Assembly: GCF_004193775.1 (NCBI RefSeq) | Contig: NC_041016.1 | Location: forward strand, 36,791,334 to 36,855,333 | Length of the DNA stretch: 64,000 bases | DNA from: Glycine soja | Lineage: Eukaryota > Streptophyta > Magnoliopsida > Fabales > Fabaceae | Reading direction: 5' to 3' | Shown: positions 22,350-64,000 of the stretch, one piece after another | Position numbering within the stretch: position 1 is the stretch's first letter | Layout: each line of letters opens with the position of its first letter | Made by a program: the position numbers and the translations under genes | Notes under the pieces: generated by a model | Told to the model about the DNA's origin: nothing | The model's database searches: none | What the model saw: the letters and a program-made list of their open reading frames with translations, nothing else

Positions 22350-22615
22350 TGATGTGCCATTATTTTCTCCTATTTCTTAAACCTTTTTGCATCATTTTAA
22401 TTACTGATTAGTCTTAATTGTCAAATTAATTAGGCAGTTTTATTATTTGGGTTCATTCAGCTAATTTGATGTTTTTAATCTAATTTTAGGAATTAATGAA
22501 GCATTGAGCTTAATCCGGATTTTGGTCGTGGACTTAAAGAGGGCAAATAAAGCAACATTTACCTTAGTTAATTTCTAATTAGGAGATTGCAATTTTATTT
22601 TATGTTGTTCAGTGT
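22350..22615 (+). repeat. Athila-like 3' LTR, first part (split by SIRE1)
   Basis: It starts TGATGTGCC after the PPT and is broken at 22615 by SIRE1, with the target copy AGTGT at 22611-22615. Compared with the left LTR it shows about 11 changes over 280 bp, most of them C/T. Confidence 0.9.
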
Positions 22616-23762
22616 TGAAATTCTGATACTGGGGACAGATGTCGTACAGGATGTCACGACATCACGCTTCAGAACATGCAGATTATATGTGTCCGTATGA
22701 ACAGATTAAACAAGTAAATAACACAAGAGAATTGTTAACCCAGTTCGGTGCAACCTCACCTACATCTGGGGGCTACCAAGCCAGGGAGGAAATCCACTCT
22801 CAATAGTGTTAGTTCAAGGTCTAACAGCCCCTGTTTACAACCTTCTCACCTAACCACTACCCGTGCGATCTCTACCTAAGAGCCACTCTTAGATATGAGA
22901 ACCTCCGCTCACTCCCTCTCACTCACACTCCCGTGTTTACAATTAAGTCAAAGACACACCAGAGATCAACTCTGAACAAAAGAGATCAACTCTACACACT
23001 AGAGATCAACTCTAGACACAAGAGATCAACTCTACACACATAGGTCCAACACTTGATGTTAGGGTACCATCAAGGTGGCTCACAAAAGACTCAAGTCCCA
23101 AAAACTCACAAACTAACTCTTCAATCCCGGACTTGGTACAGAACTCGTGCAGCCTCCATGATTATATAGCAATTTGCGTTTCTGGGCTGCAACGGCTTGT
23201 GCTGGAGGAGATCTATCTTCTTCTGAAAAAATCTGCAGTTAAAGAACTAAAAGATAACTTTTGATCTTTTAGTTTGAATCTTTAATCTTTAATCTTTAAT
23301 CCCTGAACAAACTCTTCTACTTTGAAATTCGAACTTTAATGATCTTTTAATTCGTTCCTAAAGATAGATCTTCTAATCTCTTGCTATCTGCACAATAATC
23401 TGTTAAAGATATAACAGATTTATATGTCCAGTATTTTCGGGCCGGATGTCAGGACATCGTGTCCGACATCGTGGATCCTGCAGCTTCACTTCTGCACTTG
23501 ACTTTTATCTTGCATTGTACAGCAACTCCAGTATTCTCGGGCAGGATGTCAGGACATTGTATCCGACATCGTGGATCCTGCAACTTCAATTCTTCATTTG
23601 ACATTTTATCTTGCCTTGTGCATTGTGCAGCCCGATCTCATTCCTTGACATATCGTTGGACATCATGTGCAGCAACTCCAGCTTTCCTTCATTGTCTAAG
23701 TGCTTATGTTTTAACAAAATCTTAGCCAATCTTTTAAAGCTCAGTAGAGCTAAACACTAACA
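22616..23762 (-). repeat. SIRE1 copy A 3' LTR (left)
   Basis: TGAAATTCTG to ACTAACA on the plus strand. It has a minus-strand TATA box (CTATATAAT) at about 23161-23169. Short tandem repeats of AGAGATCAACTCTACACAC lie at 22960-23040. Three 26-bp dyads (GATGTC-N6-RATGTC-N2-GACATC) are at 22638-22663 (plus), 23445-23470 and 23545-23570 (minus). Confidence 0.93.
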
Positions 23763-24406
23763 ATCTCCCCCTTTGGCAAATTTTGTCTAAAACATACTTA
23801 GACACTTCCTGAGCAGGTACGAGCAGTTATGCAAGTGGGATCAGCAACTTCCATTATCAGAGTAATCAAGCACAGCGGAAATTCTTCAAGTTGCAAATCT
23901 ACAAGTCTTCTCCAGGATGTCAAGACATCTCTCGTGACATCAGCTTTCTGCTACTGCTCCCCCTGTCTTCATGCTTACTGCATCATCTTCTATCAGCTAC
24001 TAGTCTTTTCCAGGATGTCGAGACATCTCATGTGACATCCGCTATCTGCTCCCCCTGTCTTCATGCTCTTTACTGCAGCATCTTCTAGTAGCTTACATCA
24101 GTCGTCATCAGCAGCAGTCTCCCCCTCAAAATCGTGTACATACAACTCCCCCTCAAGGTCATGAATCATGCATACATCGTATCCTACTGCCATACATCTA
24201 CTATTGCATACATAGTATCCTATTACTCAAAATCATGCATAATAGCAAGCATAATACTATTACTCCCCCTTTTTAGACATAAATTTGGCAAAAGTAGGAT
24301 GCATGAAATTAATGTGCGAATATTACAGACCAATAACAATCAATTGTTCAAAGGGACATGCCCCTTTAGCTAATAAAAGTGAAAAGCAAACATAAGGGTC
24401 TGATGA
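23763..24406 (-). mobile_element. SIRE1 copy A 3' untranslated zone with multiple PPTs
   Basis: The tract GCCAAAGGGGGAGAT (minus, 23763-23777) touches the LTR and is the primary PPT. At least five more GGGGGAG runs on the minus strand appear at about 23957, 24051, 24121, 24147 and 24263, matching the multiple polypurine tracts known for Sireviruses. Two 26-bp dyads lie between them (23916-23941 and 24014-24039). No ORF of note. Confidence 0.85.
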
Positions 24407-26349
24407 TCATGGGGTGGCTTCAGAATCATCATCTGATTCTGTCTCTTCTGCTGCATCTTCCTCTTCCTCAGCAGCTTCTTCTTCTTCTTCAGCTGCTTCT
24501 CCTTCTTCCTCAGCTGCTTCTTCATCATCAATGCCATTCTCTGAGAGCCTTTCGATCAGCCGTTCCAGCTCCATTTTCTTCTCTGTGGTGGCTTTGATGG
24601 TTGTTTCCAGCACCTTGCATGTGTCCTTGAGTTCAGCAATCAAGGCATCCTTGGACACAGCACCTGAAGCAGCTTTCCCTGATGTCGAGACAATGTCTGG
24701 GACATGTGTCCCCTCAAACAATTTGTAATGCAGGGATAGAGGAGATTCTCTTTTCATCACAGAGTCAGTGTAGTTTAACATATTGGGATGCTGACTCAAC
24801 ATAATGCCACACAATACAGTAGGGAAGGCAATGGGTAATTTGACAGCAAATGATTCTGAATGCTTAACAGTTTGATCAAAAATATAGTTTCCAAAATTAA
24901 ATTTGGACTTGGTTCCAACAGCATACAGAAATTTACCCAAACCTGTGGCAACAGTGGAAGTATGATTGGTGGGAACCCAGTTTGCAGCTCCAATCCTGTG
25001 CAGAATTGCATACTTCACACTTAGCTTCCCTGCTGAAAGCTTCCCTTTCTTTGGCCAATGCTGGACTCGTTTGGCAGTGATTTCCTTGGCAATTTGATGC
25101 TCAGAAACATCAATATCTATCACTCCATCAGTAGGTCTGCCCAGATATTTGTTGATCACAGCAGGGGAGAATCTAACACACTTTCCTCTGACAAACACTC
25201 TTTGATAATCATCACTTTTTCTGTTTGATATGTCAGAGGGAATGTTGACAATCAATTCCCTGACTAGGCCTTCATAACAGTCTCCCAACTTGGTGACTGT
25301 CTTCAGTAGTCCAGCAGCCTTGATGAGGTCCATGGTCTCCTTGCAATCCAAGGCATCTCTTCCCAGTTCTCTTTCAACCGCAAGCCAGGCACCTTTCTTC
25401 CAGATTTCTTGGCCCTCTTAGATGTCGAGACATCTAGTTCGACATCATCATCAGAATCGGATGAGGAAATTTCTTTCCTTTTCTTGGAGGGGATAACAAC
25501 CTTGCTTCTTCTGGATGTGGCAGGAGTGATTGGAGTACTCTTCTTCTGTGCCATAGTCTTGATTCTTCCAGACCTCTTAAGGGGGGTTTTTCCCTTTCTG
25601 TTTTGAAGTCTTTCCGCAATGCCAGGTGCCAACCTGTTGGCAATGGGTTCTTCATCAGATTCGACTTCTTCCAGGTCAATGAGGTCACCTGGAGCAGTTT
25701 CTGGTGCCCGTGGTGCAGGAGTCTCCTCTGAGGCTTGATCCTCTTCTTCTGTTGATTCCTCTTCACTGGGTGAAGGGAGGGCTTCAGCATTTGGAGCGGA
25801 GGATGTTGGAACATCTTTCTCAGCATCAGGCACGGAAACACTTGGCGTGGAAGATGTTGGAACATCTTTCTCAGCATCAGGCACAGAAGCATCTTTCAGA
25901 ATGCTACTCACAATACTGCGGATTTTCTTGTCCATCTCCGTGTCTACTTCCCTAGGACTTGTTGCAGGGCTAGGGTTTTCAGCAATCTTCACTCCCTGTT
26001 GTCTTCTGGGAACCAGTTTCTCAGGGACTGAAGCTTGACCAGGAATTATTTGTATGGGTTGGATGTTGAATTCTGGTTGTTCCTGGTGCGGAGATGATGG
26101 TACAGCGGGTGAACCAGGAGCGGAAGTTTCTTTTGGTGAGGAAGCCATGGAAAAACAGAGCGTTTGGAATGATTTCGTAAATCTCAGAAAACTATTGGGA
26201 AAGGCTGGTGAAAACACGAATGCCAAGCAGATATAAATTTGAATGAAGAATGTAGAGGGGCGTGTGAGGCAACGGTCGAATTTGCTTTGTGGTGAACGTG
26301 CTATTAATGTTAAGTGATTCGTTTGGGCACGTTCAGATTGCAGTAGCTG
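24407..26349 (-). pseudogene. env-like: SIRE1 copy A env-like protein, frameshifted by an 85-bp deletion
   Basis: The frame is open from the pol UAG (26350) through an N-terminal leader to about 25390, giving a Pro/Ser-rich acidic part with two DAEKDVPTSS repeats and a basic patch (SKKRKEISSSDSDDD). Compared with copy B, 85 bp (copy B 60073-60157) are missing, so the frame shifts and soon ends at 25303. The remaining C-terminal half is open in the second frame from 25351 (MDCKETMDLI) to 24407, with GRPTDGVIDID, a Lys/Glu-rich coiled coil and a Glu/Ala tail. The product is called env-like because of its position and published SIRE1 work. I see no clear signal peptide or membrane span that would prove an envelope role. 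Confidence 0.88.
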
Positions 26350-26352
26350 CTA
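26344..26352 (-). promoter_or_regulatory. UAG CAG CTA stop-codon readthrough context (copy A)
   Basis: Gag-pol ends ...GAG GAA TTA TAG CAG CTA on the minus strand. UAG followed by CAR YYA is the readthrough context known from tobamoviruses and reported for SIRE1 env-like expression. The 41 codons after the UAG up to the env-like ORF are open in the same frame. Confidence 0.85.
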
Positions 26353-29300
26353 TAATTCCTCTAGCAGACAAATGCCCAGCTTGCCCCTCAGTTTTTCAAA
26401 CTGATTTGCATCCAAAGCCTTTGTGAAAATATCTGCTATTTGTTCCTCAGTGTCAACATGCTTCAGTGTGATCACTTTATCATCAACAAGATCTCTGATA
26501 TAGTGATGTCTAATGTCAATGTGCTTGGTTCTGCTGTGTTGAACAGGATTTTTAGAAATATTAATAGCACTCATGTTGTCACAGTACAATGTCATGACAT
26601 CTTGTTCGACATTGTACTCCTTCAGCATCTGCTTCATCCAAACTAGCTGTGAACAGCTGCTTCCTGCTGCAATATACTCGGCTTCTGCTGTAGATAGGGA
26701 CACACAGTTCTGCTTCTTGCTGAACCATGAAATAAGATTGTTTCCCAAATAGAAGCATCCACCAGAAGTGCTTTTTCTGTCATCTGCACTTCCAGCCCAA
26801 TCAGCATCACAATACCCAACCAGCATTGAATTTGAACAATGACAGTACATAATCCCATAGTCACTAGTGCCATTTACATATTTCAGAATTCTCTTTACTT
26901 GATTCAAGTGACTTATCTTGGGATTGGCTTGATATCTTGCACAAACACCCACTGCATAGGTGATGTCGGGTCTGCTAGCTGTTAAATATAGTAAGCTCCC
27001 TATCATGCTTCTGTACAGGCTTTGATCAACACTGGTCCCTGCTTCATCTTTTGACAGCTTCAAGTGAGTAGGTGCAGGTGTTCTTTTATGGCTGGCATTC
27101 TCCATCCCAAACTTCTTGACAATGTTCTTTGTATACTTGCTCTGTGAGAGGAATATGGAGTCTTCCATCTGCTTCACTTGGAGTCCCAGAAAATAAGTCA
27201 GCTCTCCAACAAGACTCATCTCAAATTCATATTGCATCTGTTGAACAAAATGTCGAAGCATCTCATTCGACATCCCTCCAAACACAATGTCATCAACATA
27301 TATCTGTGCTATCATCAAGTTTTCAGCATCTTGCTTGACAAAGAGAGTCTTGTCAATTCCTCCCTTCCTATACCCTTGCTGAGTTAGGAACTCTGTTAGC
27401 CTTTCATACCAAGCTCTTGGAGCTTGCTTCAATCTATAGAGAGCCTTCTTGAGCCTGTATACATGATCTGGATGAGTTGGATCTACAAATCCCTTTGGCT
27501 GCTCCACATAGACTTCTTCATTCAGGTATCCATTCAGAAATGCGCTCTTCACATCCATCTGGTACAGCTTGAATTTGAGGATGCAAGCCACACCAAGTAA
27601 TAATCTGATGGACTCAAGTCTAGCAACTGGGGCAAAGGTCTCATCAAAGTCTACACCTTCAATCTGAGTGTAGCCTTGAGCAACCAGTCTGGCCTTGTTT
27701 CTGGTTATGACACCTTCTTCATTGGTTTTGTTCTTGAAGATCCACTTGGTGCCAATCACATTAGTTCCCTCGGGTCTCGGAACTAGCTCCCAGACTTCAT
27801 TCCTTTTAAATTGCTCCAATTCTTCTTGCATAGCATTGATCCAGAACTCATCAGTCAGTGCCTCTTTCACATTCTTGGGCTCAATTCTGGAGACAAAGCA
27901 GGAGTTGGAGACAATCTCAATCTCCCTTGATCTTGTAGTGACTCCTCTGTTTGGATCTCCTATAATCAGCTCCTTGGGGTGCATCTTCTGGATTCTAATG
28001 GAGGGTCTCTTGTCAGGTTGGTTGATGTTTGAATCATCTGTAGCAGGATCAGAGTTTTCTGCATTTTCTCCACTTTTAGCTGCATCTGCTACATTGTCTC
28101 CCGATGTTCTGACATCTTCTTCGACATCCTTCTTTCTTGCTGGAGTTAGATCATCAACAACCACATTGATGGATTCCATCACAGTTCTGGTTCTGGAATT
28201 GAATACTCTATATGCTCTGCTGTTTGTAGAGTATCCCAGGAATATTCCTGCATCACTCTTGGGATCCATCTTTCTCCTTTGCTCTCTATCTGCCAAAATG
28301 TAACATGGACTTCCAAAGATGTGGAAGTGCTTGACAGTTGGCTTCCTCCCTTTCCAGATTTCATACAGAGTGGTTGGAGTCCCTCTTCTAAGTGTGACTC
28401 TGTTGTGGATGTAGCATGCTGTGTTCATGGCTTCAGCCCAGAGATTATAGGGAAGTTCTTTGGCATGAAGCATGACCCTAGCAGCCTCTTGCAAAGTCCT
28501 GTTTTTCCTCTCAACTATCCCATTCTGTTGTGGTGTAATGGCTGCAGAGAACTCATGAGTGATGCCTTCAGATGTGCAGAATTCAGTGAACCTGCTGTTT
28601 TCAAATTCTCTGCCATGGTCACTCCTGATTCTCTTGATGACACAGTCTTTTTCTCTTAGACTCAACTCTTTGAATACTTCAAAGATTTCTGATTTCTCTC
28701 TGATAAAGTTGACCCAGGTAAATCTGGAGAAATCATCCACAACAACATAGGCATACCTCTTTCCTCCAAGGCTTTCAACCTGCATAGGCCCCATCAAATC
28801 CATGTGGAGTAGTTCCAGCACCCTGGAAGTGGTCTGATGTTGAAGCTTCTGGTGGGACATCTTGACTTGCTTTCCAATCTGACATTCACCACAGATTCTG
28901 CCTTCTTCTATTTTGAGATTGGGGATGCCTCTAACAGCACCTTTGTCAATGATTTTCTTCATGCCTCTTAAGTGCAGATGTCCAAATCTTTGATGCCATA
29001 ATTTGACTTCATCTTCTTTGGAGGATAGACATGTGGAGGAGTAGCTGGTTTCTTGGGGTGTCCATAGGTAGCAGTTGTCCTTTGATCTGCTGCCCTTCAT
29101 TAGAACTTCACTCTTCTCATTTGTCACCAAGCATTCTGACTTTGTGAAGTTTACATTGAATCCTTCATCACACAGCTGACTGATGCTGATCAAGTTTGCA
29201 GTCAGTCCCTTCACCAGCAGTACTTTGTTCAGACTAGGAAGTCCATTATGAACTAGCTTTCCCATTCCAATGATCTTTCCTTTAGAGCCATCTCCAAATG

Positions 29301-31065
29301 TCACATAACTAGTGGAGCAGGGCTCAATGTTCACCAGGAATTCTTTAACTCCTGTCATGTGTCTGGAACAGCCGCTATCTAGGTACCAATCTTCCTTAGC
29401 TGATGCTCTAAGTGAAGTATGAACAACAAGACTGACAATCTTGTGTTTTGGAACCCACATCATCTTCTTTCTGCTACTTTGAGTTCCATGATGTGGATGG
29501 CCATGTAGATGATAGCAAAAGGGCTTTATGTGACCATACTTGCCACAGTAGTGACACCTCCACTTCTTTCTTTTGCTCTTTTTCTGCTGCGTTCCATGAT
29601 GTCGAGACCGATGTTGTGACATCGTGGCTCCAGTGCTGGTTTTGGCAGGAACAAATTCTGTCATGGTTTTTCTGCCAGCAGATTTACTATTAAGCCCAAG
29701 TCCTCTCTGGTCTCCAACATTCTTCCCAAGCTGTAGCACCTCATCAAGCATATCTGAGCCTTTATTCAACATCTTTATTGATTTGGTCATGTTTTCCAGT
29801 TTAGAGTTCAGAAAACCGACTTCTCCTTTAAGCTCAGAGATCTCCTCTTTATGTGCCTTCTTCTCAGCCTCCAGATCTGCAATGACCTTCTTCAGTTGTG
29901 CTTCTTGCTGAAGAATCTTCTCACTTTTGATGCATAGTTCTCTATAGGATGTAGCAAGCTCATCAAAAGTGATTTCACTGTCTGTATCACTTGAATCTTC
30001 AGCAGATTCAAATCTCCCAGTGAGTGCATTCACATCTCTGTCAGAGTCACTTTCTTGTTCACTCTCTGTATCAGATCGACATACAGAAAGTCCTTTCCTC
30101 TGCTTCTTGAGATGAGTGGGGCATTCAGCTATGATGTGTCCATAGCCTTCACACCCATGGCATTGAATTCCTTTGCTGTGACTGGGCTTTACATCTGATC
30201 TTTTCTGGTTTTTACTGCCTTTCCTGATGTCGAAAGGGATGTTCTGGACATGTGGTTTCTGCCTCTTGTCCATTCTGTTCAGCACTTTGTTGAACTGCTT
30301 TCCAAGGAGCACAACTGCCTTAGTCAGACCTTCATCAGTATCCAGGTCATACTCATCTTCATCTCCTTCATCATTGGACACGAAAGCCAGATTCTTGCTC
30401 TTCTTTTCAGCCCTATCCGAGAGTCCTAACTCAAAGGTTTGAAGGGAACCAATGAGTTCATCTACTCTCATGTTGCAAATGTCTTGGGCCTCCTCTATTG
30501 CAGTGACTTTCATGTCAAATCTCTTAGGCAAGGATCTGAGGATCTTTCTCACCAGCTTTTCGTCTGTCATCTTTTCTCCCAAGGCAGTGCAAGCATTGGC
30601 AATTTCAAGAATGTTCATGTGGAAGTCATGAATACATTCTTCCTCCTTCATCTTCAGATTTTCGAATTTTGTGGCCAATAGTTGCAATCTGGACATCTTC
30701 ACTTTGGAGGTTCCTTCATGAGTGGTTTTCAGGATCTCCCATGCATCCTTGGCCACTGTGCAAGTGTTGATCAGTCTGAAGATGTTCTTGTCAACTCCAT
30801 TGAATAGAGCATTCAAAGCTTTGGAGTTTCCAAGTGCCAATTCGTCTTCTTCTTTAGTCCAGTCTTCTTCTGGCTTCAATTCTTCAGTGGGCTTTCCTTC
30901 TGTGTCCAGCATCTTGGGATGTTCCCAGCCTTTGATGACAGCTTTCCAGGTTCTGCTATCCAGTGATTTGAGAAAGGCCACCATTCTTGCTTTCCAGTAT
31001 TCATAGTTGGTTCCATCAAGAATTGGTGGTCTGTTCACTGGTCCTCCTTCTTTCTCCATGTTCAT
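26350..31065 (-). CDS. gag-pol: SIRE1 copy A Gag-Pol polyprotein, intact (1571 aa)
   Basis: One open frame encodes all replication functions of a Ty1-copia (Sirevirus) element. The order is: Gag N-terminus with [12 protein letters not shown]; a CCHC knuckle [14 protein letters not shown] (about residue 300); an acidic, coiled-coil stretch (about 330-440); a second knuckle [14 protein letters not shown] (about 505); protease [13 protein letters not shown] (about 560); integrase zinc region [10 protein letters not shown]...CGECQ (about 690); core [18 protein letters not shown] and [12 protein letters not shown] with YVDDIVFGG (about 1255); and RNase H with [16 protein letters not shown] and CDNMSAI. 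It lacks three residues present in copy B near SLRLQREKD, with the frame kept. The ATG lies about 45 bases after the primer-binding site. The catalytic residues I could check are all present. Confidence 0.95.
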
Positions 31066-31108
31066 CAGAATTTATCTCCCTAGATCTCACTCAGTGATTT
31101 CGAGTGTT

Positions 31109-31120
31109 GCTCTGATACCA
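31109..31120 (-). other. SIRE1 copy A primer-binding site
   Basis: The minus strand reads TGGTATCAGAGC, complementary to the 3' end of initiator tRNA-Met, two bases inside the 5' LTR. Confidence 0.9.
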
Positions 31121-31122
31121 AT

Positions 31123-32269
31123 TGAAATTCTGATACTGGGGACAGATGTCATACAGGATGTCACGACATCACGCTTCAGAACATGCAGATTATATGTGTC
31201 CGTATGAACAGATTAAACAAGTAAATAACACAAGAGAATTGTTAACCCAGTTCGGTGCAACCTCACCTACATCTGGGGGCTACCAAGCCAGGGAGGAAAT
31301 CCACTCTCAATAGTGTTAGTTCAAGGTCTAACAGCCCCTGTTTACAACCTTCTCACCTAACCACTACCCGTGCGATCTCTACCTAAGAGCCACTCTTAGA
31401 TATGAGAACCTCCGCTCACTCCCTCTCACTCACACTCCCGTGTTTACAATTAAGTCAAAGACACACCAGAGATCAACTCTGAACAAAAGAGATCAACTCT
31501 ACACACTAGAGATCAACTCTAGACACAAGAGATCAACTCTACACACATAGGTCCAACACTTGATGTTAGGGTACCATCAAGGTGGCTCACAAAAGACTCA
31601 AGTCCCAAAAACTCACAAACTAACTCTTCAATCCCGGACTTGGTACAGAACTCGTGCAGCCTCCATGATTATATAGCAATTTGCGTTTCTGGGCTGCAAC
31701 GGCTTGTGCTGGAGGAGATCTATCTTCTTCTGAAAAAATCTGCAGTTAAAGAACTAAAAGATAACTTTTGATCTTTTAGTTTGAATCTTTAATCTTTAAT
31801 CTTTAATCCCTGAACGAACTCTTCTACTTTGAAATTCGAACTTTAATGATCTTTTAATTCGTTCCTAAAGATAGATCTTCTAATCTCTTGCTATCTGCAC
31901 AATAATCTGTTAAAGATATAACAGATTTATATGTCCAGTATTTTCGGGCCGGATGTCAGGACATCGTGTCCGACATCGTGGATCCTGCAGCTTCACTTCT
32001 GCACTTGACTTTTATCTTGCATTGTACAGCAACTCCAGTATTCTCGGGCAGGATGTCAGGACATTGTATCCGACATCGTGGATCCTGCAACTTCAATTCT
32101 TCATTTGACATTTTATCTTGCCTTGTGCATTGTGCAGCCCGATCTCATTCCTTGACATATCGTTGGACATCATGTGCAGCAACTCCAGCTTTCCTTCATT
32201 GTCTAAGTGCTTATGTTTTAACAAAATCTTAGCCAATCTTTTAAAGCTCAGTAGAGCTAAACACTAACA
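31123..32269 (-). repeat. SIRE1 copy A 5' LTR (right)
   Basis: 1147 bp, nearly identical to 22616-23762. The dyads are at 31145-31170, 31952-31977 and 32052-32077. The LTR is followed by the AGTGT target copy and the rest of the Athila-like LTR. Confidence 0.93.
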
Positions 32270-33110
32270 AGTGTTTATTTCGTTTTGGGCCAGAATAATG
32301 TAATAGGGCCCAGTGACTTTGAGTGACCCTTATAAATAGAAGCCTTGGGATTCATGTAAAAGGGGATTCCATTATTCAGAGCAGAGGGTTTTAGGGTTTT
32401 ACGTTTTTAGCTTTGGATTACTATTCACGTAAGGCATTTTTTCATTTTTCTGCTTTCAATTGCAATTTCATTTTTTTTTTCTGTTCCTTCTTCTAGTTTC
32501 ATATGTTTTCTGCCTTTAGCTTCATTTACGTTTCTATTTTTGTTGAACTTATGGAAGGCTAAATTCCTAGTGTTGTTTCCCTCTGAGGATGAAGCATAAT
32601 TCTCTTTGAGGTTCTGTTTTTAATGTTGCTCTCCTATCGGTTGTCCCTTCACCAATTAACCCACATGTGTTCTGTTAATCTGTGCATGCTTCGTGTTCGA
32701 TTAATTGCCTCTGTGCTTAAATTGCGTTCGTGCCTAATGAACAAGGGGTTAATTGGTGTATGTGTTGCTTAATCACATATTGACAACCCTAAGTTGATTT
32801 TCACTTAGTAAATTAAATTAAGGTTGGATTAAATGGTTAATTGCTAGGGGTGAAATCCTCATAACCTAGGATAAGAGAATGACTTCTGAATCAGAGAAAA
32901 CAACACATTTTTACTATTATTAATTTTGTATTCCAATCTGCTTGTTCTTAAATTCACAAAACAAACACAACCCCCCCTCCCCCGATTGTTACTGTTACTG
33001 CAAGTATATTATGAACATTTGGTTTATCATTGCTCGTTGGGAAACGACCTAGGATCACTTCCTATTTACTGCATTTTAATGTTTATTTGATTCGGGTACG
33101 GCCTCGATCA
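32270..33110 (+). repeat. Athila-like 3' LTR, second part
   Basis: This continues the LTR broken at 22615, collinear with 13962-14789, including TTATAAATAG at about 32331 and the end CTCGATCA at 33110. The target copy TCTAG (33111-33115) and Tekay RT follow. Confidence 0.9.
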
Positions 33111-34793: not shown

Positions 34794-37009
34794 TGTTAGA
34801 CAAGTGGCCTCAGATATCTTAAGAAGGGGGGGGGGTTGAATTAAGATATTCCAAACTACTTCCCCAATTAAAATCTATTTCACTTTCTTTTCAAGTTATA
34901 AATTCCCTTAACAATGAACTTCTTAAATATTAATTCAAATAAAACAATTTTGTTAGTGCTTAGCTCTACCGAGTGTTTAAAAGATTGGCTAAGATTTTGT
35001 TAAAACATAAGCACTTAGACAATGAAGGAAAGCTGGAGTTGCTGCACATGATGTCCAACGTTATGTCAAGGAATCAGATCGGGCTGCACAATACACAAGG
35101 CAAGATAAAATGTCAAATGAAGAATTGAAGCTGCAGGATCCACGATGTCGGATACAATGTCCAGGACATCCTGCCCGAAAATACTGGACACATAAATCTG
35201 TTATATCTTTAACAGATTGTGCAGGATCCACGATGTCGGACACGATGTCCTGACATCCGGCCCGAAAATACTGGACACATAAATCTGTTATCTCTTTAAC
35301 AGATTATTGTGCAGTTAGCAACAGATTTGGCGATCTATCTCTTGGAACGAATTAAAAGATAATTAAAGTTCGAATTACAAACTTGAATAGTTCGTTCAGG
35401 GATTAAAGATTAAAGATAAAAACTAAAAGATCAAACTGTATCTTTTAGATCTTTAAGTGCAGATTTTCAGGAAAATGATAGATCTCATCCAGCACAAGCT
35501 GTTGCAGCCCAGATACGCACACTGCTATATAAACATGAAGGCTGCACGAGTTTTCAACCAAGTCCGGGATTGAAGAGTTATTTTGTGAGTTTTGGGACTT
35601 GAGTGTTTTGTGAGCCACCTTGATGTCACCCTAACATCAAGTGTTGGACCTGAGTGTGTAGAGTTGATCTCTATAGTGTATGGAGTTGATCTCTATTGTT
35701 CAGAGAGCAATCTCTGGTGTGTATTCGATTTAATTGTAAACACGGGAGAGTGATTCAGAGGGAGTGAGAGGGGTTTCTCATATCTAAGAGTGGCTCTTAG
35801 GTAGAGGTTGCACGGGTAGTGGTTAGGTGAGAAGGTTGTAAACAGTGGCTGTTAGATCTTCGAACTAACACTATTTTAGTGGATTTCCTCCCTGGCTTGG
35901 TAGCCCCCAGATGTAGGTGACGTTGCACCGAACTGGGTTAACAATTCACTTGTGTTATTTACTTGTTTAATCTGCTCATACGGTCAAAATATAATCTGCA
36001 TGTTCTGAAGCGCGATGTCGTGACATCCTGTACGACATCTGTCCCCAGTATCAGAATTTCAAATTTGAATATGAATATAAAGCAATAATAAACAAAGGAG
36101 ATTAAGGGAAGAGAAAGTGCAAACTCAGATTTATACTGGTTCGGCCACACCCTTGTGCCTACGTCCAGCCCCCAAGCAACCCGCTTGAGAGTTCCACTAT
36201 CTTGTAAATTCCTTTTACAAGTTCTAAACACACAAGGACAATCCTTCCTTTGTGTTTAGAATTCCTTTACAACAAGAGACCCACAGTCTCTTAATCCCTT
36301 AGAGAATGAGGAGAAGAAGAAGAATGAACTCTCTAGAAAGAGATAGATTTTATAGATTGAGCACTCAAATAATTCCTTAATGAATTGCAATTGAATTGGC
36401 CAAGGAATTTTTAAGAGGATAGAATGATTTTTGCTCTTTGAGAGGATAAACACTTGTTGTTCTCAAAAACTCTGTCAAAATCGTGTCTCAAGTCACATAT
36501 ATATAGGCCTATGATAGCCATTCAATAACCACATAAAAAGATGTGACTGTTGAGAATGTTTTCTGAAAAAATCCTCTGGTAATCGATTACAATAAGTGTG
36601 TAATCGATTACACTCTTTAAAATTTGAATTAAAACGTTCAGAAACTGCTGGTAATCGATTACTATATATGTGTAATCGATTACACAGTGCAAATTTTGAA
36701 TTCAAATTTAAATAGCTGTTGTAAATCAGTTTTGGCCACTGGTAATCGATTACATCCTCTGGTAATCGATTACCAAAGAGTAAATTTGTTGAAAAAGACT
36801 TTTTTAACTTAAAATTCTTGGCCAAACCTTTTGCGATTTCAATTGGAATTCCCTTCCTATTTAATATCCTTTCTAAGACTCTATAGACTGTCTTGATCAT
36901 CCATCTTGAATATCTCTAATTGCTTTGTCTTGAGTAAATCTTTGAGAAGCATATGATTCATGTAATCCTTTGGCATCATCAAAACATTCAGCTTGATCCT
37001 TTGTCTACA
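34794..37009 (-). repeat. 3' LTR (left), interrupted by a solo SIRE1 LTR
   Basis: LTR sequence lies at 34794-34950 and 36067-37009. Minus-strand TATA box TATATATA is at about 36497-36505. TAATCGATTA palindromes start at 36580, 36601, 36652, 36673, 36743 and 36763, making three pairs with 21, 21 and 20 bp spacing. It ends TTTGTCTACA at 37009, next to the PPT. Confidence 0.9.
34951..36061 (+). mobile_element. Solo SIRE1-family LTR, TSD AATTT
   Basis: TGTTAGTGC to CAGAATTTCA, 1111 bp, oriented opposite to SIRE1 copies A and B. It is flanked by AATTT at 34946-34950 and 36062-36066. The uninterrupted site AAACAATTTGAATATG is present at 44014 and 50117 in the matching LTRs, which proves the insertion. 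It is more diverged than the other SIRE1 LTRs and contains an internal duplication around the dyad region (35129-35270). A solo LTR is what remains after recombination between the two LTRs of one element. Confidence 0.92.
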
Positions 37010-57275: not shown

Positions 57276-58440
57276 TGAAATTCTGATACTGGGGACAGAT
57301 GTCGTACCGGATGTCACGACATCACGCTTCAGAACATGCAGATTGTGTTTGACTGTATAAACAGATTAAACAAGTAAATAACACAAGAGAATTGTTAACC
57401 CAGTTCGGTGCAACCTCACCTACATCTGGGGGCTACCAAGCCAGGGAGGAAATCCACTAAAATAGTGTTAGTTCAAGGTCTAACAGCCACTGTTTACAAC
57501 CTTCTCACCTAACCACTACCCGTGCGACCTCTACCTAAGAGCCACTCTTAGATATGAGAAACCCTGCTCACTCCCTCTCAATCACACTCCCGTGTTTACA
57601 AACAAATCAAAGACACACCAGAGATTGCTCTCTGAACAATAGAGATCAACTCTACACACTAGAGATCAACTCTACACACAAGAGATCAACTCTACACACA
57701 AGAGATCAACTCTACACACAAGAGATCAACTCTACACACTCAGGTCCAACACTTGATGTTAGGGTACCATCAAGGTGGCTCACAAAACACTCAAGTCCCA
57801 AAACTTACAAAACAACTCTTCAATCCCGGACTTGGTACAGAACTCGTGCAGCCTCCATGATTATATAGCAATGTGCGTTTCTGGGCTGCAACTGCTTGTG
57901 CTGGATGAGATCTATCATTTTCCTGAAAATCTGCACTTAAAGATCTAAAAGATACAGTTTGATCTTTTAGTTTTTATCTTTAATCTTTAATCCCTGAACG
58001 AACTCTTCTACTTTGAAATTCGAACTTTACTTATCTTTTAATTCGTTCCTAAAGATAGATCATCTAATCTCTTGCTAACTGCACAATAATCTGTTAAAGA
58101 TATAACAGATTTATGTGTCCAGTATTTTCGGGCCGGATGTCAGGACATCGTGTCCGACATCGTGGATCCTGCACAATCTGTTAAAGATATAACAGATTTA
58201 TGTGTCCAGTGTTTTCGGGCAGGATGTCAGGACATTGTATCCGACATCGTGGATCCTGCAGCTTCAATTCTTCATTTGACATTTTATCTTGCCTTGTGCA
58301 TTGTGCAGCCCGATCTTATTCCTTGACATAACGTTGGACATCATGTGCAGCAACTCCAGCTTTCCTTCATTGTCTAAGTGCTTATGTTTTAACAAAATCT
58401 TAGCCAATCTTTTAAAACTCCGTAGAGCTAAGCACTAACA
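57276..58440 (-). repeat. SIRE1 copy B 3' LTR
   Basis: TGAAATTCTG to CACTAACA, 1165 bp. It has five AGAGATCAACTCTACACAC-type units (57640-57740) against four in copy A. A local rearrangement places two CAATCTGTTAAAGATATAACAGATTTATGTGTCC blocks (about 58085 and 58175) next to the two dyads. Confidence 0.92.
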
Positions 58441-59091
58441 ATCTCCCCCTTTGGCAAATTTTGTCTAAAACATACTTAGACACTTCCTGAGCAGGTACGA
58501 GCAGTTATGCAAGTGGGATCAGCAACTTTCATTATCAGAGTAATCAAGCACAGCGGAAATTCTTCAAGTTGCAAATCTACAAGTCTTCTCCAGGATGTCT
58601 AGACATCTCACGTGACATCAGCTTTCTGCTTCTGCTCCCCCTGTCTTCATGCTTACTGCAGCATCTTCTATCAGCTACTCGTCTTTTCCAGGCGCTTTCT
58701 GCTCCCCCTGTCTTCATGCTCTTACTGCAGCATCTTCTATCAGCTTCTAGTAGCTTACATCAGTCATCCTCAGCAGCAGCAGTCTCCCCCTCAAGATCAT
58801 ATTCATACAACTCCCCCTCAGAATCATGAATCATGCATACATCGTTTCCTACTGCCATACATCGTATCAATCATGCATAATACGACTATTGCATACATAG
58901 TATCCTACTGCTCAAAATCATGCATAATAGCAAGCATAATACTATTACTCCCCCTTTTTAGACAAAATTTGACAAAAGTAGAATGCATGAACTTAAGGTG
59001 CAAATATTACAGACCAATAACTAGTAATTGTTCAAGGGACATGCCCCTTTAGCTAGTAAAAGTAAAAAGCAAAAATAGAAAGGTCTGATGA
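58441..59091 (-). mobile_element. SIRE1 copy B 3' untranslated zone with multiple PPTs
   Basis: GCCAAAGGGGGAGAT (minus, 58441-58455) touches the LTR. Further GGGGGAG or GGGGAGC runs occur at about 58637, 58703, 58785, 58811 and 58949. One of the two dyads seen here in copy A is lost by a small deletion near 58690. Confidence 0.85.
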
Positions 59092-61170
59092 TCATGGGGT
59101 GGCTTCAGAATCATCATCATCGGATTCTGTATCTTCTGCTGCATCTTCCCCTTCCTCAGCAACTTCTTCTTCTTCCTCAGCTGCTTCTTCTTCCTCAGCT
59201 GCTTCACCATCATCAATGCCACTGTCTGTGAGTCTTTCGATTAGCCGTTCCAGCTCCATTTTCTTCTCTGTGGTGGCTTTGATGGTTGCTTCCAGCACCT
59301 TGCATGTGTCCTTGAGTTCAGCAATCAAGGTATCTTTGGACACAGCACCTGAAGCAGCAGCTTTCCCTGATGTCGAGACAATGTCTGGGACATGTGTCCC
59401 CTCAAACAGTTTGTAATGCAGGGATAGAGGAGATTCTCTCTTCATCACAGAGTCAGTGTAGTTTAAAATATTTGGATGTTGACTCAACATAATGCCACAC
59501 AGTACAGTAGGGAAGGCAATGGGTAATTTGACAGCAAAGGATTCTGAATGCTTAACAGTTTGATCAAAAATATAGTTTCCAAAATTAAATTTGGACTTGG
59601 TTCCAACAGCATACAGAAATTTACCCAAACCTGTGGCAACAGTGGATGTATGATTAGTGGGTACCCAGTTTGCAGCACCAATCCTGTGCAGAATTGCATA
59701 CTTCACACTTAGCTTCCCTGCAGACAGCTTCCCTTTCTTTGGCCAATGCTGGACTCGTTTGGCAGTGATTTCCTTGGCAATCTGATGCTCAGAAGCATCA
59801 ATATCCACCACTCCTTCAGTAGGTCTGCCCAGGTACTTGTTGATCACAGCAGGGGAGAATCTAACACACTTTCCTCTGACAAACACTTTCTGATAATCAT
59901 CATTTTTTCTGTTTGTTATGTCAGAGGGAATGTTGACAATGAATTCCCTGACTAGGCCTTCATAACAGTCTCCCAACTTGGTGACTGTCTTCAGTAGTCC
60001 AGCAGCCTTGATGAGGTCCATGGTCTCCTTGCAATCCAAGGCATCTCTTCCCAGTTCTCTCTCAACCGCAAGTCTGCGTTGATACACATATTTCCACTTT
60101 TCAACATTGCCAATGGAGTGGAAAGAGATGTTGTCCAATGGTGCATCAGGAACATTTCCAGGCACCTTTCTCCCAGATTTCTTGGCCCTCTTTGATGTCG
60201 AGACATCTAGTTCGACATCATCATCAGAATCGGATGAGGAAATTTCTTTCCTCTTCTTGGAGGGGATTGCAACCTTGCTCCTTCTGGATGTGGTAGGAGT
60301 GATTGGAGTGCTCTTCTTCTGGGCCATAGTTTTGATTCGTCCAGACCTCTTGATGGGGGTTTTTCCCTTTCTGCTTTGTAGTCTTTCTGCAATGCCAGGT
60401 GCCAACTTGTTGGCAATGGGTTCCTCATCAGATTCTACCTCTTCAAGGTCAATGAGGTCACCTGGAGCAGGTTCTGGTGCCCTTGGTGCAGGGGTCTTCT
60501 CTGTGGCTTGATCTTCTTCTTCTGTTGATTCCTCTTCACTGGGTGAAGGGAGGGCTTCAGCATTTGGGCCGGAAGATGTTGGAACATCTTTCTCAACATC
60601 AGGCACAGAAACATTCGGGGTGGAAGATGTTGGGACATCTTCATCAGCTTCAGGGACAGCAACATCTGGGGTGGAAGATGTTGGAACATCTTTCTCAGCA
60701 TCAGGAACAGAGGCGTCTTTCAAAATGCTACTCACAATACTGCGGATTTTCTTGTCCATTTCCGGGTCTACTTCCCTAGGACTTGTTGCAATGCTAGGGT
60801 TTTCAGAAATCTTCACTCCCTGTTGTCGTTTAGGAACCAGTTTTTCAGGAACAGGGGCTTGACCAGGAATCATCTGTATGGGCTGAATATTGAATTCAGG
60901 TCGTTCCTGGTTTGATGGTGCAGAGGGTGAACCAGGAGCTGAAGTTTCTTTTGGTGAGGTAGCCATGGAGAAGCAGAGCGTTTGGAATGATTTCGTAAAT
61001 CTCAGAGAGCTGTTAGGGAATGCTGAAAACGAGATTACCACGAAAATATAAGTTTGAATGAGGAATGTAGAGGGGCGTGTGAAGCAACGGTCGAATTTGC
61101 TTTGGTTTAGTAGTGAACGTGCTATTAATGTTAAGTGAGACGTTTGAGCACGTTCAGATAGCAGTAGCTG
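59092..61170 (-). CDS. env-like: SIRE1 copy B env-like readthrough domain, intact
   Basis: The frame is open from the codon after the pol UAG (61170) to the stop at 59092; from the GTG at 61041 it is 649 codons, the size reported for SIRE1 ORF2. The first ATG suitable for independent translation is at about 60966 (MATSPKETSAPG), but readthrough from pol fits better because the leader is open and in frame. The order is: short hydrophobic start; Pro/Ser/Glu-rich region with three DVEKDVPTSS-like repeats; basic patch SKKRKEISSSDSDDD; a domain with MDLIKAAGLLKTVTKLGDCY, GKCVRFSPAVINKYLGRPT and WVPTNHTSTVATGLGKFLY (like the putative plant transposon domain, from memory); a coiled coil ELKDTCKVLEATIKATTEKK; and a Glu/Ala acidic tail. 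No convincing transmembrane helix is seen. Confidence 0.88.
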   Translation of the reverse strand, partial: QLLLSERAQTSHLTLIARSLLNQSKFDRCFTRPSTFLIQTYIFVVISFSAFPNSSLRFTKSFQTLCFSMATSPKETSAPGSPSAPSNQERPEFNIQPIQMIPGQAPVPEKLVPKRQQGVKISENPSIATSPREVDPEMDKKIRSIVSSILKDASVPDAEKDVPTSSTPDVAVPEADEDVPTSSTPNVSVPDVEKDVPTSSGPNAEALPSPSEEESTEEEDQATEKTPAPRAPEPAPGDLIDLEEVESDEEPIANKLAPGIAERLQSRKGKTPIKRSGRIKTMAQKKSTPITPTTSRRSKVAIPSKKRKEISSSDSDDDVELDVSTSKRAKKSGRKVPGNVPDAPLDNISFHSIGNVEKWKYVYQRRLAVERELGRDALDCKETMDLIKAAGLLKTVTKLGDCYEGLVREFIVNIPSDITNRKNDDYQKVFVRGKCVRFSPAVINKYLGRPTEGVVDIDASEHQIAKEITAKRVQHWPKKGKLSAGKLSVKYAILHRIGAANWVPTNHTSTVATGLGKFLYAVGTKSKFNFGNYIFDQTVKHSESFAVKLPIAFPTVLCGIMLSQHPNILNYTDSVMKRESPLSLHYKLFEGTHVPDIVSTSGKAAASGAVSKDTLIAELKDTCKVLEATIKATTEKKMELERLIERLTDSGIDDGEAAEEEEAAEEEEEVAEEGEDAAEDTESDDDDSEATP

Positions 61171-61173
61171 CTA
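61165..61173 (-). promoter_or_regulatory. UAG CAG CTA readthrough context (copy B)
   Basis: Identical to copy A. Pol ends TTA TAG CAG CTA, and all codons after it are open into the env-like frame. Known from SIRE1 work as the suppression signal for env-like expression. Confidence 0.85.
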
Positions 61174-64000
61174 TAATTCCTCTAGCAGGCAAATGCCCAG
61201 CTTGCCCCTCAGTTTTTCAAACTGATTTGCATCCAATGCCTTTGTGAAACTATCTGCTATTTGTTCCTCAGTGTCAACATGCTCCAGTGTGATAACTTTA
61301 TCATCAACAAGCTCTCTGATATAGTGATGTCTGATGTCAATGTGCTTGGTTCTGCTGTGTTGCACAGGATTTTTAGAAATATTAATAGCACTCAAGTTGT
61401 CACAGTATAATGTCATGACATCTTGTTCGACATTGTACTCTTTGAGCATCTGCTTCATCCAAACTAGTTGTGAACAGCTGCTTCCTGCTGCAATATACTC
61501 TGCTTCTGCAGTAAATAGGGACACACAGTTCTGCTTCTTGCTGAACCATGAAATAAGATTGGTTCCCAAATAGAAACATCCACCAGAAGTGCTTTTTCTG
61601 TCATCTGCACTTCCAGCCCAATCAGCATCACAATACCCAACCAGCATTGAATCTGAACAATGACAGTACATAATCCCATAGTCACTGGTGCCATTTACAT
61701 ATTTCAGAATTCTCTTTACTTGAGTCAAGTGACTTATCTTAGGATTGGCTTGATATCTTGCACAAACACCTACTGCATAGGTGATGTCGGGTCTGCTAGC
61801 TGTTAAATATAGTAAGCTCCCAATCATGCTTCTGTACAGACTTTGATCAACACTGGTGCCAGCTTCATCTTTTGACAGCTTCAAGTGAGTAGGTGCAGGT
61901 GTTCTTTTATGGCTGGCATTCTCCATCCCAAACTTCTTGACAATGTTCTTTGCATACTTGCTTTGTGAGAGGAATATGGAGTCTTCCATCTGCTTCACTT
62001 GAAGTCCCAGAAAATATGTCAGCTCTCCAACAAGACTCATCTCAAATTCAGATTGCATCTGTTGAACAAAATGTCGAAGCATCTCATTCGACATCCCTCC
62101 AAACACAATGTCATCAACATATATCTGTGCTATCATCAAGTTTTCAGCATCTTGCTTGACAAAGAGAGTCTTGTCAATTCCTCCCTTCCTATACCCTTGC
62201 TGAGTAAGGAACTCTGTTAGCCTTTCATACCAAGCTCTTGGAGCTTGCTTCAATCCATAGAGAGCCTTCTTGAGCCTGTATACATGATATGGATGAGTTG
62301 GATCTACAAATCCCTTTGGCTGCTCCACATAGGCTTCTTCATTCAGGTATCCATTCAGAAACGCGCTCTTCACATCCATCTGGTACAGCTTGAATTTGAG
62401 GATGCAAGCTACACCAAGTAACAATCTGATGGACTCAAGTCTGGCAACTGGGGCGAATGTTTCATCAAAGTCTACACCTTCAATCTGAGTGTAGCCTTGA
62501 GCAACAAGTCTGGCCTTGTTTCTGGTTATAACACCTTCTTCATCGGTTTTGTTCTTGAAGATCCACTTGGTGCCAATCACATTAGTTCCCTCGGGTCTCG
62601 GAACTAGCTCCCAGACTTCATTCCTTTTGAATTGCTCCAATTCTTCTTGCATAGCATTGATCCAGAACTCATCAGCCAGTGCCTCTTTCACATTCTTGGG
62701 CTCAATTTTGGAGACAAAACATGAGTTGGAGACAATCTCAATCTCCCTTGATCTTGTAGTGACTCCTCTGTTTGGATCTCCTATAATCAGCTCCTTGGGG
62801 TGCATCTTCTGGATTCTAATGGAGGGTCCCTTGTCGGGTTGGTTGATGTTTGATTCATCTGTAGCAGAATCAGAGTTTTATGCATTTCCTGCACTTTTAG
62901 CTGTATCTGCTACATTGTCTCCCGATGTTCTGACATCTTCTTCGACATCCTTCTTTCTTGCTGGAGTTAGATCATCAACAACCACATTGATGGATTCCAT
63001 CACAGTTCTGGTTCTGGAATTGAATACTCTATATGCTCTGCTGTTTGTAGAGTATCCCAGGAATATTCCTGCATCACTCTTGGGATCCATCTTTCTCCTT
63101 TGCTCTCTATCTGCCAAAATGTAACATGGACTTCCAAAGATGTGGAAGTGCTTGACAGTTGGTTTCCTCCCTTTCCAGATTTCATACAGTGTGGTTGGAG
63201 TCCCTCTTCTCAGTGTGACTCTGTTGTGGATGTAGCATGCTGTGTTCATGGCTTCAGCCCAGAGATTATAGGGAAGTTCTTTGGCATGAAGCATGACCCT
63301 AGCAGCCTCTTGCAAAGTCCTGTTTTTCCTCTCAACTATGCCATTCTGTTGTGGTGTAATGGCTGCAGAGAACTCATGAGTGATGCCTTCAGATGTGCAG
63401 AATTCAGTAAACCTGCTGTTTTCAAACTCTCTGCCATGGTCACTCCTGATTCTCTTGATGACACAGTCTTTTTCTCTTTGAAGTCTTAGACTCAACTCCT
63501 TGAATACTTCAAAGGTGTCTGATTTTTCTCTGATAAAGTTGACCCAGGTAAATCTGGAGAAATCATCCACAACAACATAGGCATACCTCTTTCCTCCAAG
63601 GCTTTCAACTTGCCTAGGCCCCATCAAGTCCATGTGAAGTAGTTCCAGCACCCTGGAAGTGGTCTGATGTTGAAGCTTCTGGTGGGACATCTTGACTTGC
63701 TTTCCAATCTGACATTCACCACAAATTCTGCCTTCTTCTATTTTCAGATTGGGAATGCCTCTAACAGCACCTTTGTCAATAATTTTCTTCATGCCTCTTA
63801 AGTGCAGATGTCCAAATCTTTGATGCCATATTCTGACTTCATCTTCTTTGGAGGATAGACATGTGGAGGAGTAACTGGTTTCTTGAGGTGTCCATAGGTA
63901 ACAGTTGTCCTTTGATCTGCTGCCCTTCATTAGAACTTCACTCTTCTCATTTGTCACCAAGCATTCTGACTTTGTGAAGTTTACATTGAATCCTTCATCA
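61171..64000 (-). pseudogene. gag-pol: SIRE1 copy B Pol (integrase, RT, RNase H), one nonsense codon, 5' end outside the window
   Basis: The frame is open from the window edge through [13 protein letters not shown], integrase [32 protein letters not shown] and [10 protein letters not shown], until a TAA at 62878-62880 that replaces the Glu of AEN in copy A. It resumes at once with [21 protein letters not shown] ([25 protein letters not shown]) and RNase H ([31 protein letters not shown]), ending at the UAG. Copy B keeps LQR near SLRLQREKD that copy A lacks. Apart from the nonsense codon, the domains look complete. Confidence 0.9.

What the first reader, a model, noticed from the sequence alone, without database searches (positions are those of the whole stretch)
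22638..32077. A 26-bp spaced dyad recurs across SIRE1 in LTRs, untranslated and coding DNA
The pattern GATGTC-N6-GATGTC-N2-GACATC (18 fixed positions, small variation) is found on the minus strand at 23445, 23545, 23916, 24014, 24681, 25421, 25802, 25853, 26588, 27249, 28103, 29598, 31952 and 32052 (each spans 26 bp). It is found on the plus strand at 22638 and 31145, and a 27-bp variant lies at 30226. In env and pol it encodes DVELDVSTS, DAEKDVPTS and DVEEDVRTS, but in another reading frame MSNEMLRHF and MSQHRSRHH. The spacing and halves are kept while the protein frame changes, so something acts on the nucleic acid itself. Candidates are a host or element DNA-binding protein, an RNA hairpin used in packaging or dimerisation, or a target or decoy for small RNAs. 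I know of conserved palindromes in Sirevirus LTRs, but not of this dyad spread through coding regions.
Basis: seen in the sequence. Interest (0 to 1): 0.88.

Follow-up and report, generated by a model that had tools for sequence, protein, structure and literature searches.

The report
Repeated DNA-binding-like dyads throughout soybean SIRE1
A soybean endogenous retrovirus-like element carries the same spaced DNA palindrome about every kilobase, even inside its genes, and the DNA letters of that palindrome change far less between copies than the letters around it, which points to an unknown DNA-binding protein that recognises the whole element.

Summary
GATGTC-N6-GATGTC-N2-GACATC has 38 matches (27 distinct places) with up to 3 mismatches in the window, against 0.04 expected. 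All lie in one Sirevirus, a truncated second copy and an isolated LTR. The genome holding the window has 9,165 matches with up to 1 mismatch, 0 for the reversed pattern. Inside genes, 5 sites with up to 2 mismatches stand against 0.23 expected from synonymous codon choice.

Between copies, fixed positions differ in 25 of 3,888 cells (33 if one shift hidden by the alignment is counted), spacers in 123 of 1,728, flanks in 1,604 of 29,475. Copies found without the dyad agree: 4/576, 34/256, 190/3,731. In one subfamily env codons change from STS to LDI or PDI while GACATC survives, shifted by one base.

On the sense strand A-C mismatches exceed G-U pairs, and sense folding is no stronger than antisense. 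This favours DNA recognition over an RNA hairpin.

Best reading: an operator array for a sequence-specific DNA-binding protein, akin to Sirevirus LTR palindromes, which a 2010 survey reported SIRE1 to lack, but extending into gag, pol and env. The binder is unidentified.

The parts
22616..32269 (-). SIRE1-type Sirevirus provirus (element A), flanked by the 5-bp target duplication AGTGT (22611-22615 and 32270-32274)
   Evidence: LTRs of 1147 bp with 2 differences, target duplication; primer site next to the 5' LTR; gag, integrase and RT domains
22616..23762 (-). 3' LTR
31123..32269 (-). 5' LTR; TATA-like boxes near LTR offsets 340 (TATAAAT) and 595 (CTATATAA)
26350..31065 (-). gag-pol open frame, 1571 aa, ending in TAG followed by CAGCTACTG
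24407..26226 (-). env-like region, in two overlapping frames in this copy; the second half matches PF20167 Transposase_32
22638..22663 (+). dyad near the inner end (U5) of 3' LTR, antisense to the element, 0 mismatches
23445..23470 (-). dyad, U3 of 3' LTR, 0 mismatches
23545..23570 (-). dyad, U3 of 3' LTR, 1 mismatch, in a 100-bp tandem unit with the previous one
23916..23941 (-). dyad, untranslated DNA after env, 0 mismatches
24014..24039 (-). dyad, untranslated DNA after env, 0 mismatches; partly deleted in element B
24681..24706 (-). weaker dyad in env, 3 mismatches
25421..25446 (-). dyad in env (DVELDVSTS), 0 mismatches; N3 form with middle half-site GATGTT, encoding LDI or PDI instead of STS, in subfamily 2
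25802..25827 (-). weaker dyad in env tandem unit, 4 mismatches, with matching changes in the inner arms (GATGTT..AACATC)
25853..25878 (-). weaker dyad in env tandem unit, 4 mismatches
26588..26613 (-). dyad near the end of pol (NVEQDVMTL), 2 mismatches, outer arms fully paired
27249..27274 (-). weaker dyad in RT part of pol, other frame (MSNEMLRHF), 3 mismatches
28103..28128 (-). dyad in integrase-RT linker of pol (DVEEDVRTS), 1 mismatch
29598..29623 (+). dyad between gag and integrase parts of the frame, antisense orientation, 1 mismatch (sense frame MSQHRSRHH)
30226..30252 (+). 27-bp N3 dyad in gag, antisense orientation, 2 mismatches
31145..31170 (+). dyad near the inner end (U5) of 5' LTR, 0 mismatches
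31952..31977 (-). dyad, U3 of 5' LTR, 0 mismatches, LTR offset about 293
32052..32077 (-). dyad, U3 of 5' LTR, 1 mismatch, LTR offset about 193
35232..35257 (+). dyad in an isolated LTR of the same family
36014..36039 (-). U5-type dyad in the isolated LTR
57298..63691 (.). element B, a second SIRE1 copy cut off by the window end, with dyads at 57298, 58136, 58223, 58594, 59369, 60194, 60575, 61409, 62070, 62924 and weaker ones

Best explanation
The dyads are a dispersed array of operators, that is binding sites on double-stranded DNA for one sequence-specific protein. The site has two outer half-sites, GATGTC (mostly followed by a purine) and its inverse, 20-21 bp apart centre to centre (about two helical turns, so on one face of the DNA), plus a third GATGTC between them. 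Shown: the array is real, precisely spaced, and its fixed letters change far less between copies than spacers (in non-coding DNA) and flanks. Inferred: purifying selection at the DNA level, and a dimer or larger oligomer that binds. Inferred and less sure: binding all along the provirus, with gaps of about 0.4-1.6 kb, keeps the element transcribable (promoter activation from U3 plus local protection from silencing), in the way VANC proteins act on VANDAL transposons. [quoted passage not shown] I put about 0.35 on the anti-silencing role, and roughly equal odds on a host transcription factor and on an element-encoded binder such as the env-like protein, which has a KKRK run, a PF20167 domain and an acidic tail.
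For: Enrichment: 38 matches (27 places) against 0.04; 9,165 genome-wide against 0 for the reversed pattern. Spacing: all 25 half-site pairs within 60 bp at 8, 12 or 20 bp. Codon-conditional null: 5 against 0.23, P=4.8e-6. Conservation: 25/3,888 fixed (33 with the hidden shift), 123/1,728 spacer, 1,604/29,475 flank; copies picked without the dyad give 4/576, 34/256, 190/3,731 and 6/1,080 against 1,051/36,243. Synonymous positions 4/826 (12 with the hidden shift) against 1,062/14,025; columns 3/57 (4/57) against 231/994, P=3.7e-4 (0.0016). Subfamily 2 keeps GACATC through a one-base insertion and a one-base deletion while three residues change. DNA rather than RNA: A-C mismatches 11, G-U 4 on the sense strand; summed folding energy -102.6 sense, -112.5 antisense over 15 sites. 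Even distribution by coefficient of variation, P between 0.001 and 0.0055 by site set. A search for perfect sites with spacer position 9 = C or T found 3, all inside SIRE1 copies, so perfect sites outside SIRE1 are probably very few.
Against: No binding protein was identified and no binding data exist here. The 14 long copies were found through perfect dyads, which biases. In the dyad-independent coding set the synonymous column test is not significant: 2/15 against 104/664, P=0.58. In tandem regions BLAST may place two query sites on one copy site (visible), so cells are not all independent. In subfamily 2 the middle env half-site is GATGTT in 8 of 8 copies. Element A against B: fixed positions 5/225 substituted plus 9 gapped, rest 309/6,175 plus 44; these fixed changes lie in the env tandem array and one partly deleted site. 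In coding sites the spacers also show no synonymous change, 0/403, so conservation there is not confined to the 18 positions. The largest-gap test of evenness is weak with up to 4 mismatches (P=0.08). The triple site points with the sense strand at 11 of 14 distinct sites, which DNA binding does not require. Weak sites (25802, 25853, 24681, 27249) could be partly protein-driven.
Confidence: 0.72

Rival explanations
1. RNA hairpins: the genomic RNA folds each dyad into a small stem-loop used by Gag for packaging, by the element for dimerisation, or by the host to make small RNAs.
For: Each perfect dyad can fold, and loop size N2/N3 would be tolerated. 11 of 14 triple sites are in sense orientation. 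Matching arm changes at 25802 and 26588. Positions 7 and 20 could extend the stem at 9 of 13 sites, four of them by G-T. Maize Sirevirus LTR palindromes attract small RNAs (passages of PMC10760457 citing Bousios 2016).
Against: Sense folding is weaker in sum than antisense (-102.6 against -112.5), and A-C mismatches (11) outnumber G-U wobbles (4) in the arms, both contrary to selection on sense RNA. Positions 8 and 19 could pair at only 5 of 13 sites. Three distinct sites are antisense.
Confidence: 0.13
2. A protein motif: DVxxDVxTS is a functional peptide in env and in the integrase-RT linker, and the DNA dyad is its by-product.
For: A form of the peptide is kept in 17 of 49 extracted linkers from plant homologues (4 of the 17 are SIRE1-like themselves), at the same place in an otherwise variable linker, and a form of it occurs in 37 of 41 env-like proteins.
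Against: The same DNA occurs in LTR and untranslated DNA, antisense, and in other frames. Subfamily 2 env loses STS but keeps GACATC. Codon choice is non-random given the peptide.
Confidence: 0.07
3. Recent spread by duplication: the dyads descend from one sequence copied around the element, with no function now.
For: Local tandem units exist: 100-bp units in U3, about 98-bp units after env, 51-bp units in env.
Against: Between regions the flanks shown share nothing obvious beyond the dyad (by eye), and copies drift freely in non-coding spacers but not at the fixed positions.
Confidence: 0.04
4. Target or decoy sites for a host or element small RNA.
Against: Sites differ at most spacer positions, so no 21-24 nt RNA would match more than a few of them. 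Reasoned, not measured: no small-RNA data were available.
Confidence: 0.04

Closest known systems
[quoted passage not shown] 2010, PMC2829016 (section 9 with Table 3, and passages read)
   Same: [quoted passage not shown] The SIRE1 U3 dyads sit at LTR offsets of about 193 and 293, TATA-like boxes at about 340 and 595.
   Different: SIRE1-1 was among the 21 elements examined, is not in Table 3 of 13, and is named among env-bearing elements that lack the boxes. The SIRE1 dyad has no CGG-CCG core, is a triple half-site, and also lies in U5, gag, pol, inside env and after env.
VANC-target motifs of Arabidopsis VANDAL transposons, PMC5735166 and PMC10398659 (passages read)
   Same: A short motif repeated along one transposon family, local tandem amplification, family specificity, and effects that spread over the whole element.
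   Different: VANC sites lie in non-coding DNA and bind a known element-encoded protein; VANDALs are DNA transposons. The SIRE1 binder is unknown and many sites are in coding DNA.
Maize Sirevirus LTR palindrome CACCGGAC-N3-GTCCGGTG (PMC10760457 passages; Bousios 2016 cited there, not read)
   Same: Repeated palindrome in a Sirevirus LTR.
   Different: Different letters, in the LTR cis-region, linked to small RNAs.
Composite three-part response elements such as heat-shock elements, and auxin response factor sites with a TGTC core (recalled, no call)
   Same: Several half-sites with fixed spacing.
   Different: As recalled, the GATGTC half-site and the 12/8 bp spacing match neither; no motif library was searched.

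Membership tests
Sirevirus (SIRE1 type) | Ty1/copia order: gag, integrase, then reverse transcriptase | tested here: met
   Pfam matches gag, integrase, RVT_2 in that order in four pieces of the frame; protease and RNase H had no Pfam match of their own
Sirevirus (SIRE1 type) | Multiple copies of one PPT octamer before the 3' LTR | tested here: met
   6 copies of AGGGGGAG between env and 3' LTR, none elsewhere on the sense strand; PMC2829016 gives 5 for SIRE1-1
Sirevirus (SIRE1 type) | Env-like gene separated from pol only by a stop codon | tested here: met
   TAG, then CAGCTACTG, with the env-like frame following; read-through itself not testable
Sirevirus (SIRE1 type) | Close relatives in Glycine | tested here: met
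Sirevirus RM boxes | Palindromic dyad in at least eight copies | tested here: met
   14 distinct sites, 17 with both LTRs
Sirevirus RM boxes | CGG-CCG core (all listed but Tnd-1) | tested here: not met
   Half-site is GATGTC
[quoted passage not shown]
   Also in gag, pol, within env and after env
Sirevirus RM boxes | RM clusters form CpG islands | not tested
   not computed
VANC-type anti-silencing system | Element-encoded protein binds the motif and removes methylation | not testable with these tools
   no binding or methylation data
VANC-type anti-silencing system | Encoded protein related to VANC (DUF1985, name recalled) | tested here: inconclusive
   No DUF1985 match in 5 env-like proteins with the limit at E 10; the planned genome search for PF09331 did not complete

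The most novel reading that the evidence does not exclude
SIRE1, an endogenous plant retrovirus-like element, encodes or recruits its own operator-binding protein and has written that protein's binding site into gag, pol and env about once per kilobase, so that the whole provirus is coated and kept open against silencing. If the env-like protein is the binder, the plant 'envelope' of such elements is a nuclear chromatin factor rather than an envelope.
Probability: 0.2. Interest if true: 0.92.

Novelty: new variant of a known kind. Interest (0 to 1): 0.7.

Why it matters
Regulatory palindromes were known in Sirevirus LTRs, but protein-binding-like sites kept inside the genes of a retroelement, against synonymous drift and even across an amino-acid change, are unusual. 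The dyad gives a concrete probe sequence for finding the factor that recognises a family with more than nine thousand such sites in this genome. It would also offer a direct test of what plant env-like proteins do, an old open question.

Tried and rejected
Site 28836 (4 mismatches) was found and set aside: it encodes MSHQKLQHQ, and most of the aligned relatives that cover it read MSH..L.H, so protein constraint may explain it. It is still counted.

Other species: no DNA of legume relatives could be reached. The one motif hit in viral contigs showed nothing retroelement-like to the eye and is taken as chance. No match in viral contigs for the RT piece. Most of the 3' LTR has no close match in plasmids. 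Five loci among bacterial genomes that encode distant copia-like relatives have no dyad with up to 4 mismatches. The clover peptide evidence is suggestive only: D at position 7 does not allow a perfect third half-site.

Structure of the PF20167 domain: useless model, mean pLDDT 37. No solved relative by sequence. A search of this genome with a melon relative scored 71 of 22,151 candidates; the 20 that I fetched are SIRE1 (2.0-3.6% from A), so other soybean Sireviruses remain untested. A later search with a dyad-free LTR piece listed 40 near-identical LTRs, not used further. Counts with an N3 spacer and the PF09331 search were asked repeatedly, N4 once, and never answered. Paper searches for SIRE1 or Sirevirus with palindrome, SIRE1 with LTR and repeats, SIRE1 with envelope, dispersed palindromic sites in retrotransposons and the hexamers (swamped by primers) listed no paper whose title, abstract or passages seen reports this dyad; only open-licence papers are held.

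Mended on the second check: the target duplication and LTR ends, the alignment-hidden GATGTT, and several counts.

Full report
What is there. Its LTRs of 1147 bp differ at 2 positions and the target duplication is AGTGT. A TGGTATCAGAGC primer site follows the 5' LTR. Pieces of its frame match copia gag, integrase and RT families, and the second half of the env-like region matches PF20167. Six AGGGGGAG octamers precede the 3' LTR and TAG ends pol.

The observation. The 26-bp pattern or a variant is at all the listed places, with 0 to 4 mismatches. The window holds 38 matches with up to 3 mismatches, against 0.04 in shuffles; overlapping and opposite-strand readings reduce them to 27 places. All lie in element A, in an isolated LTR (about 34950-36062), or in a second copy from about 57270 to the window end. 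Among perfect half-sites in element A, every pair closer than 60 bp is 8, 12 or 20 bp apart (25 pairs, both LTRs counted). Across 13 distinct N2 sites the best conserved letters are ATG of the first, TG of the second and ACAT of the third half-site; the letter after the first half-site is a purine in 12 of 13, and the one before the third a pyrimidine in 12 of 13. The outer half-sites are 20-21 bp apart.

Genome-wide. The pattern has 9,165 places with up to 1 mismatch and 0 for the reversed control (only the first 100 places are listed). Restricting spacer position 9 to C or T leaves 3 perfect places, all inside SIRE1 copies (93-94% to A over 2.8 kb). Perfect sites are therefore probably a SIRE1 property.

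Coding sites are not explained by codon choice. Given the amino acids and the codon use of the frames, 0.034 sites with up to 1 mismatch were expected and 3 found, 0.234 with up to 2 and 5 found, 1.06 with up to 3 and 7 found, 3.2 with up to 4 and 10 found (N2 and N3 pooled). The weakest sites thus add little.

Conservation. Fourteen copies were fetched around perfect dyads, plus element B. They are 91-96% identical to A and fall into two groups. At 15 sites the fixed positions differ in 25 of 3,888 cells, spacers in 123 of 1,728, flanks in 1,604 of 29,475 (deletions count as differences). The alignment hides one change: in 8 of 8 copies of subfamily 2 the middle env half-site reads GATGTT with a 3-base spacer, which makes 33 of 3,888. 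In coding sites, synonymous change at fixed positions is 4/826 (12/826 with the hidden change), at spacers 0/403, in flanks 1,062/14,025. By column, which removes most pseudo-replication, it is 3/57 against 231/994 (P=3.7e-4; 4/57 and P=0.0016 with the hidden change). For non-coding sites it is 8/90 against 106/630 (P=0.03), and spacers vary more than flanks (15/40, P=0.002). In tandem regions two query sites may land on one copy site, so cells are not all independent.

Check on bias. Because those copies were chosen through dyads, I took 20 of the 71 copies listed for an integrase-RT protein hit. Fixed positions of three sites differ in 6/1,080 cells and flanks in 1,051/36,243; synonymous cells are 2/300 against 710/13,088, but the synonymous column test is not significant (2/15 against 104/664, P=0.58). 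For 8 of these 20 I fetched the region after env and U3. All 8 carry at least one perfect dyad after env, and fixed, spacer and flank differ in 4/576, 34/256 and 190/3,731 cells. Inside the window, A against the isolated LTR gives 0/54 fixed and 84/1,029 elsewhere. A against B gives 5/225 (plus 9 gapped) and 309/6,175 (plus 44 gapped), the fixed changes being in the env tandem array and one partly deleted site.

Protein against DNA. In subfamily 2 a base is inserted in the inner spacer of the env dyad and one is lost just after it. GACATC is kept while the residues STS become LDI or PDI. The U3 dyads of the same subfamily also have a 3-base spacer; one copy of the other group, L039, is mixed. 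The dyad is read in different frames, and on the antisense strand at U5, 29598 and 30226.

DNA against RNA. Over 15 sites the summed minimum folding energy is -102.6 for sense and -112.5 for antisense. Imperfect pairs of the arms on the sense strand are 11 A-C, 4 G-U and 5 others. Selection for a sense-RNA hairpin would favour G-U over A-C. Against this, positions 7 and 20 could extend a stem at 9 of 13 sites, though 8 and 19 only at 5 of 13. The evidence is modest because the sites are few.

Layout. Sites are more even than random along the element: coefficient of variation 0.32-0.36 against about 0.77-0.78, P between 0.001 and 0.0055 depending on the mismatch limit. By largest gap (1,515-1,553 bp) P runs from 0.0006 to 0.08. 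Both LTRs are counted in this.

Other plants. From the 279 fetched proteins 49 integrase-RT linkers could be cut out; 17 hold D[VI]xx[DN][VI]x[TS][SFL] near the start of an otherwise variable linker, 4 of these being SIRE1-like and the rest clover or unnamed. This shows an old feature at that place but, without DNA, cannot tell peptide from dyad.

Mechanism. I take the dyads as operators for a sequence-specific DNA-binding protein that binds as a dimer or more across two helical turns. The most likely role is transcription and chromatin control of the provirus. The binder may be a host factor or the env-like protein, whose piece here holds a KKRK run near the dyad and an acidic tail (31 D or E in the last 70 residues). 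Binding, role and binder are inferences.

Relation to the known. Bousios et al. 2010 (PMC2829016, section 9 and passages read) describe palindromic repeated motifs in Sirevirus LTRs and upstream of env in 13 of 21 elements. SIRE1-1 was examined and is named among the env-bearing elements lacking them. The SIRE1 dyads sit at about the same U3 place but have another core and spread into the genes. In function they resemble VANC target motifs of VANDAL transposons (passages of PMC5735166, PMC10398659), which are non-coding.

Noticed in passing
window 22961-23033 and the matching part of the 5' LTR: A second palindromic repeat in the LTR: AGAGATCAACTCT four times at exactly 20-bp spacing, downstream of the TATA-like boxes.
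   Followed up: no
window 24407-26226: The env-like region of element A lies in two overlapping frames, so this copy does not encode it in one piece; longer env-like proteins exist among Glycine proteins.
   Followed up: no
window 24407-25351: The SIRE1 env-like protein matches PF20167, a family also reported for an extra ORF of an Athila (Ty3/gypsy) element in sunflower (PMC11728184 passages), hinting that different retroelement orders share this accessory protein.
   Followed up: partly
window 22644 / 31151: One of the two differences between the LTRs of element A falls in a dyad spacer, none in a fixed position.
   Followed up: no
L032, L044, L071: Some copies carry three instead of two 100-bp U3 units, each with a dyad, so dyad number changes by local tandem duplication.
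   Followed up: no
window 23639-23664, 32146-32171, 58317, 35050 (LTR offset about 100): A weaker third U3 site, GATGTC-N6-TATGTC-N2-GGAAT, is present in several copies.
   Followed up: no
L077, L078 (Labilibacter sediminis scaffolds): Copia-like sequences 44-47% identical to the query sit on contigs filed under a bacterium, possibly contamination.
   Followed up: no
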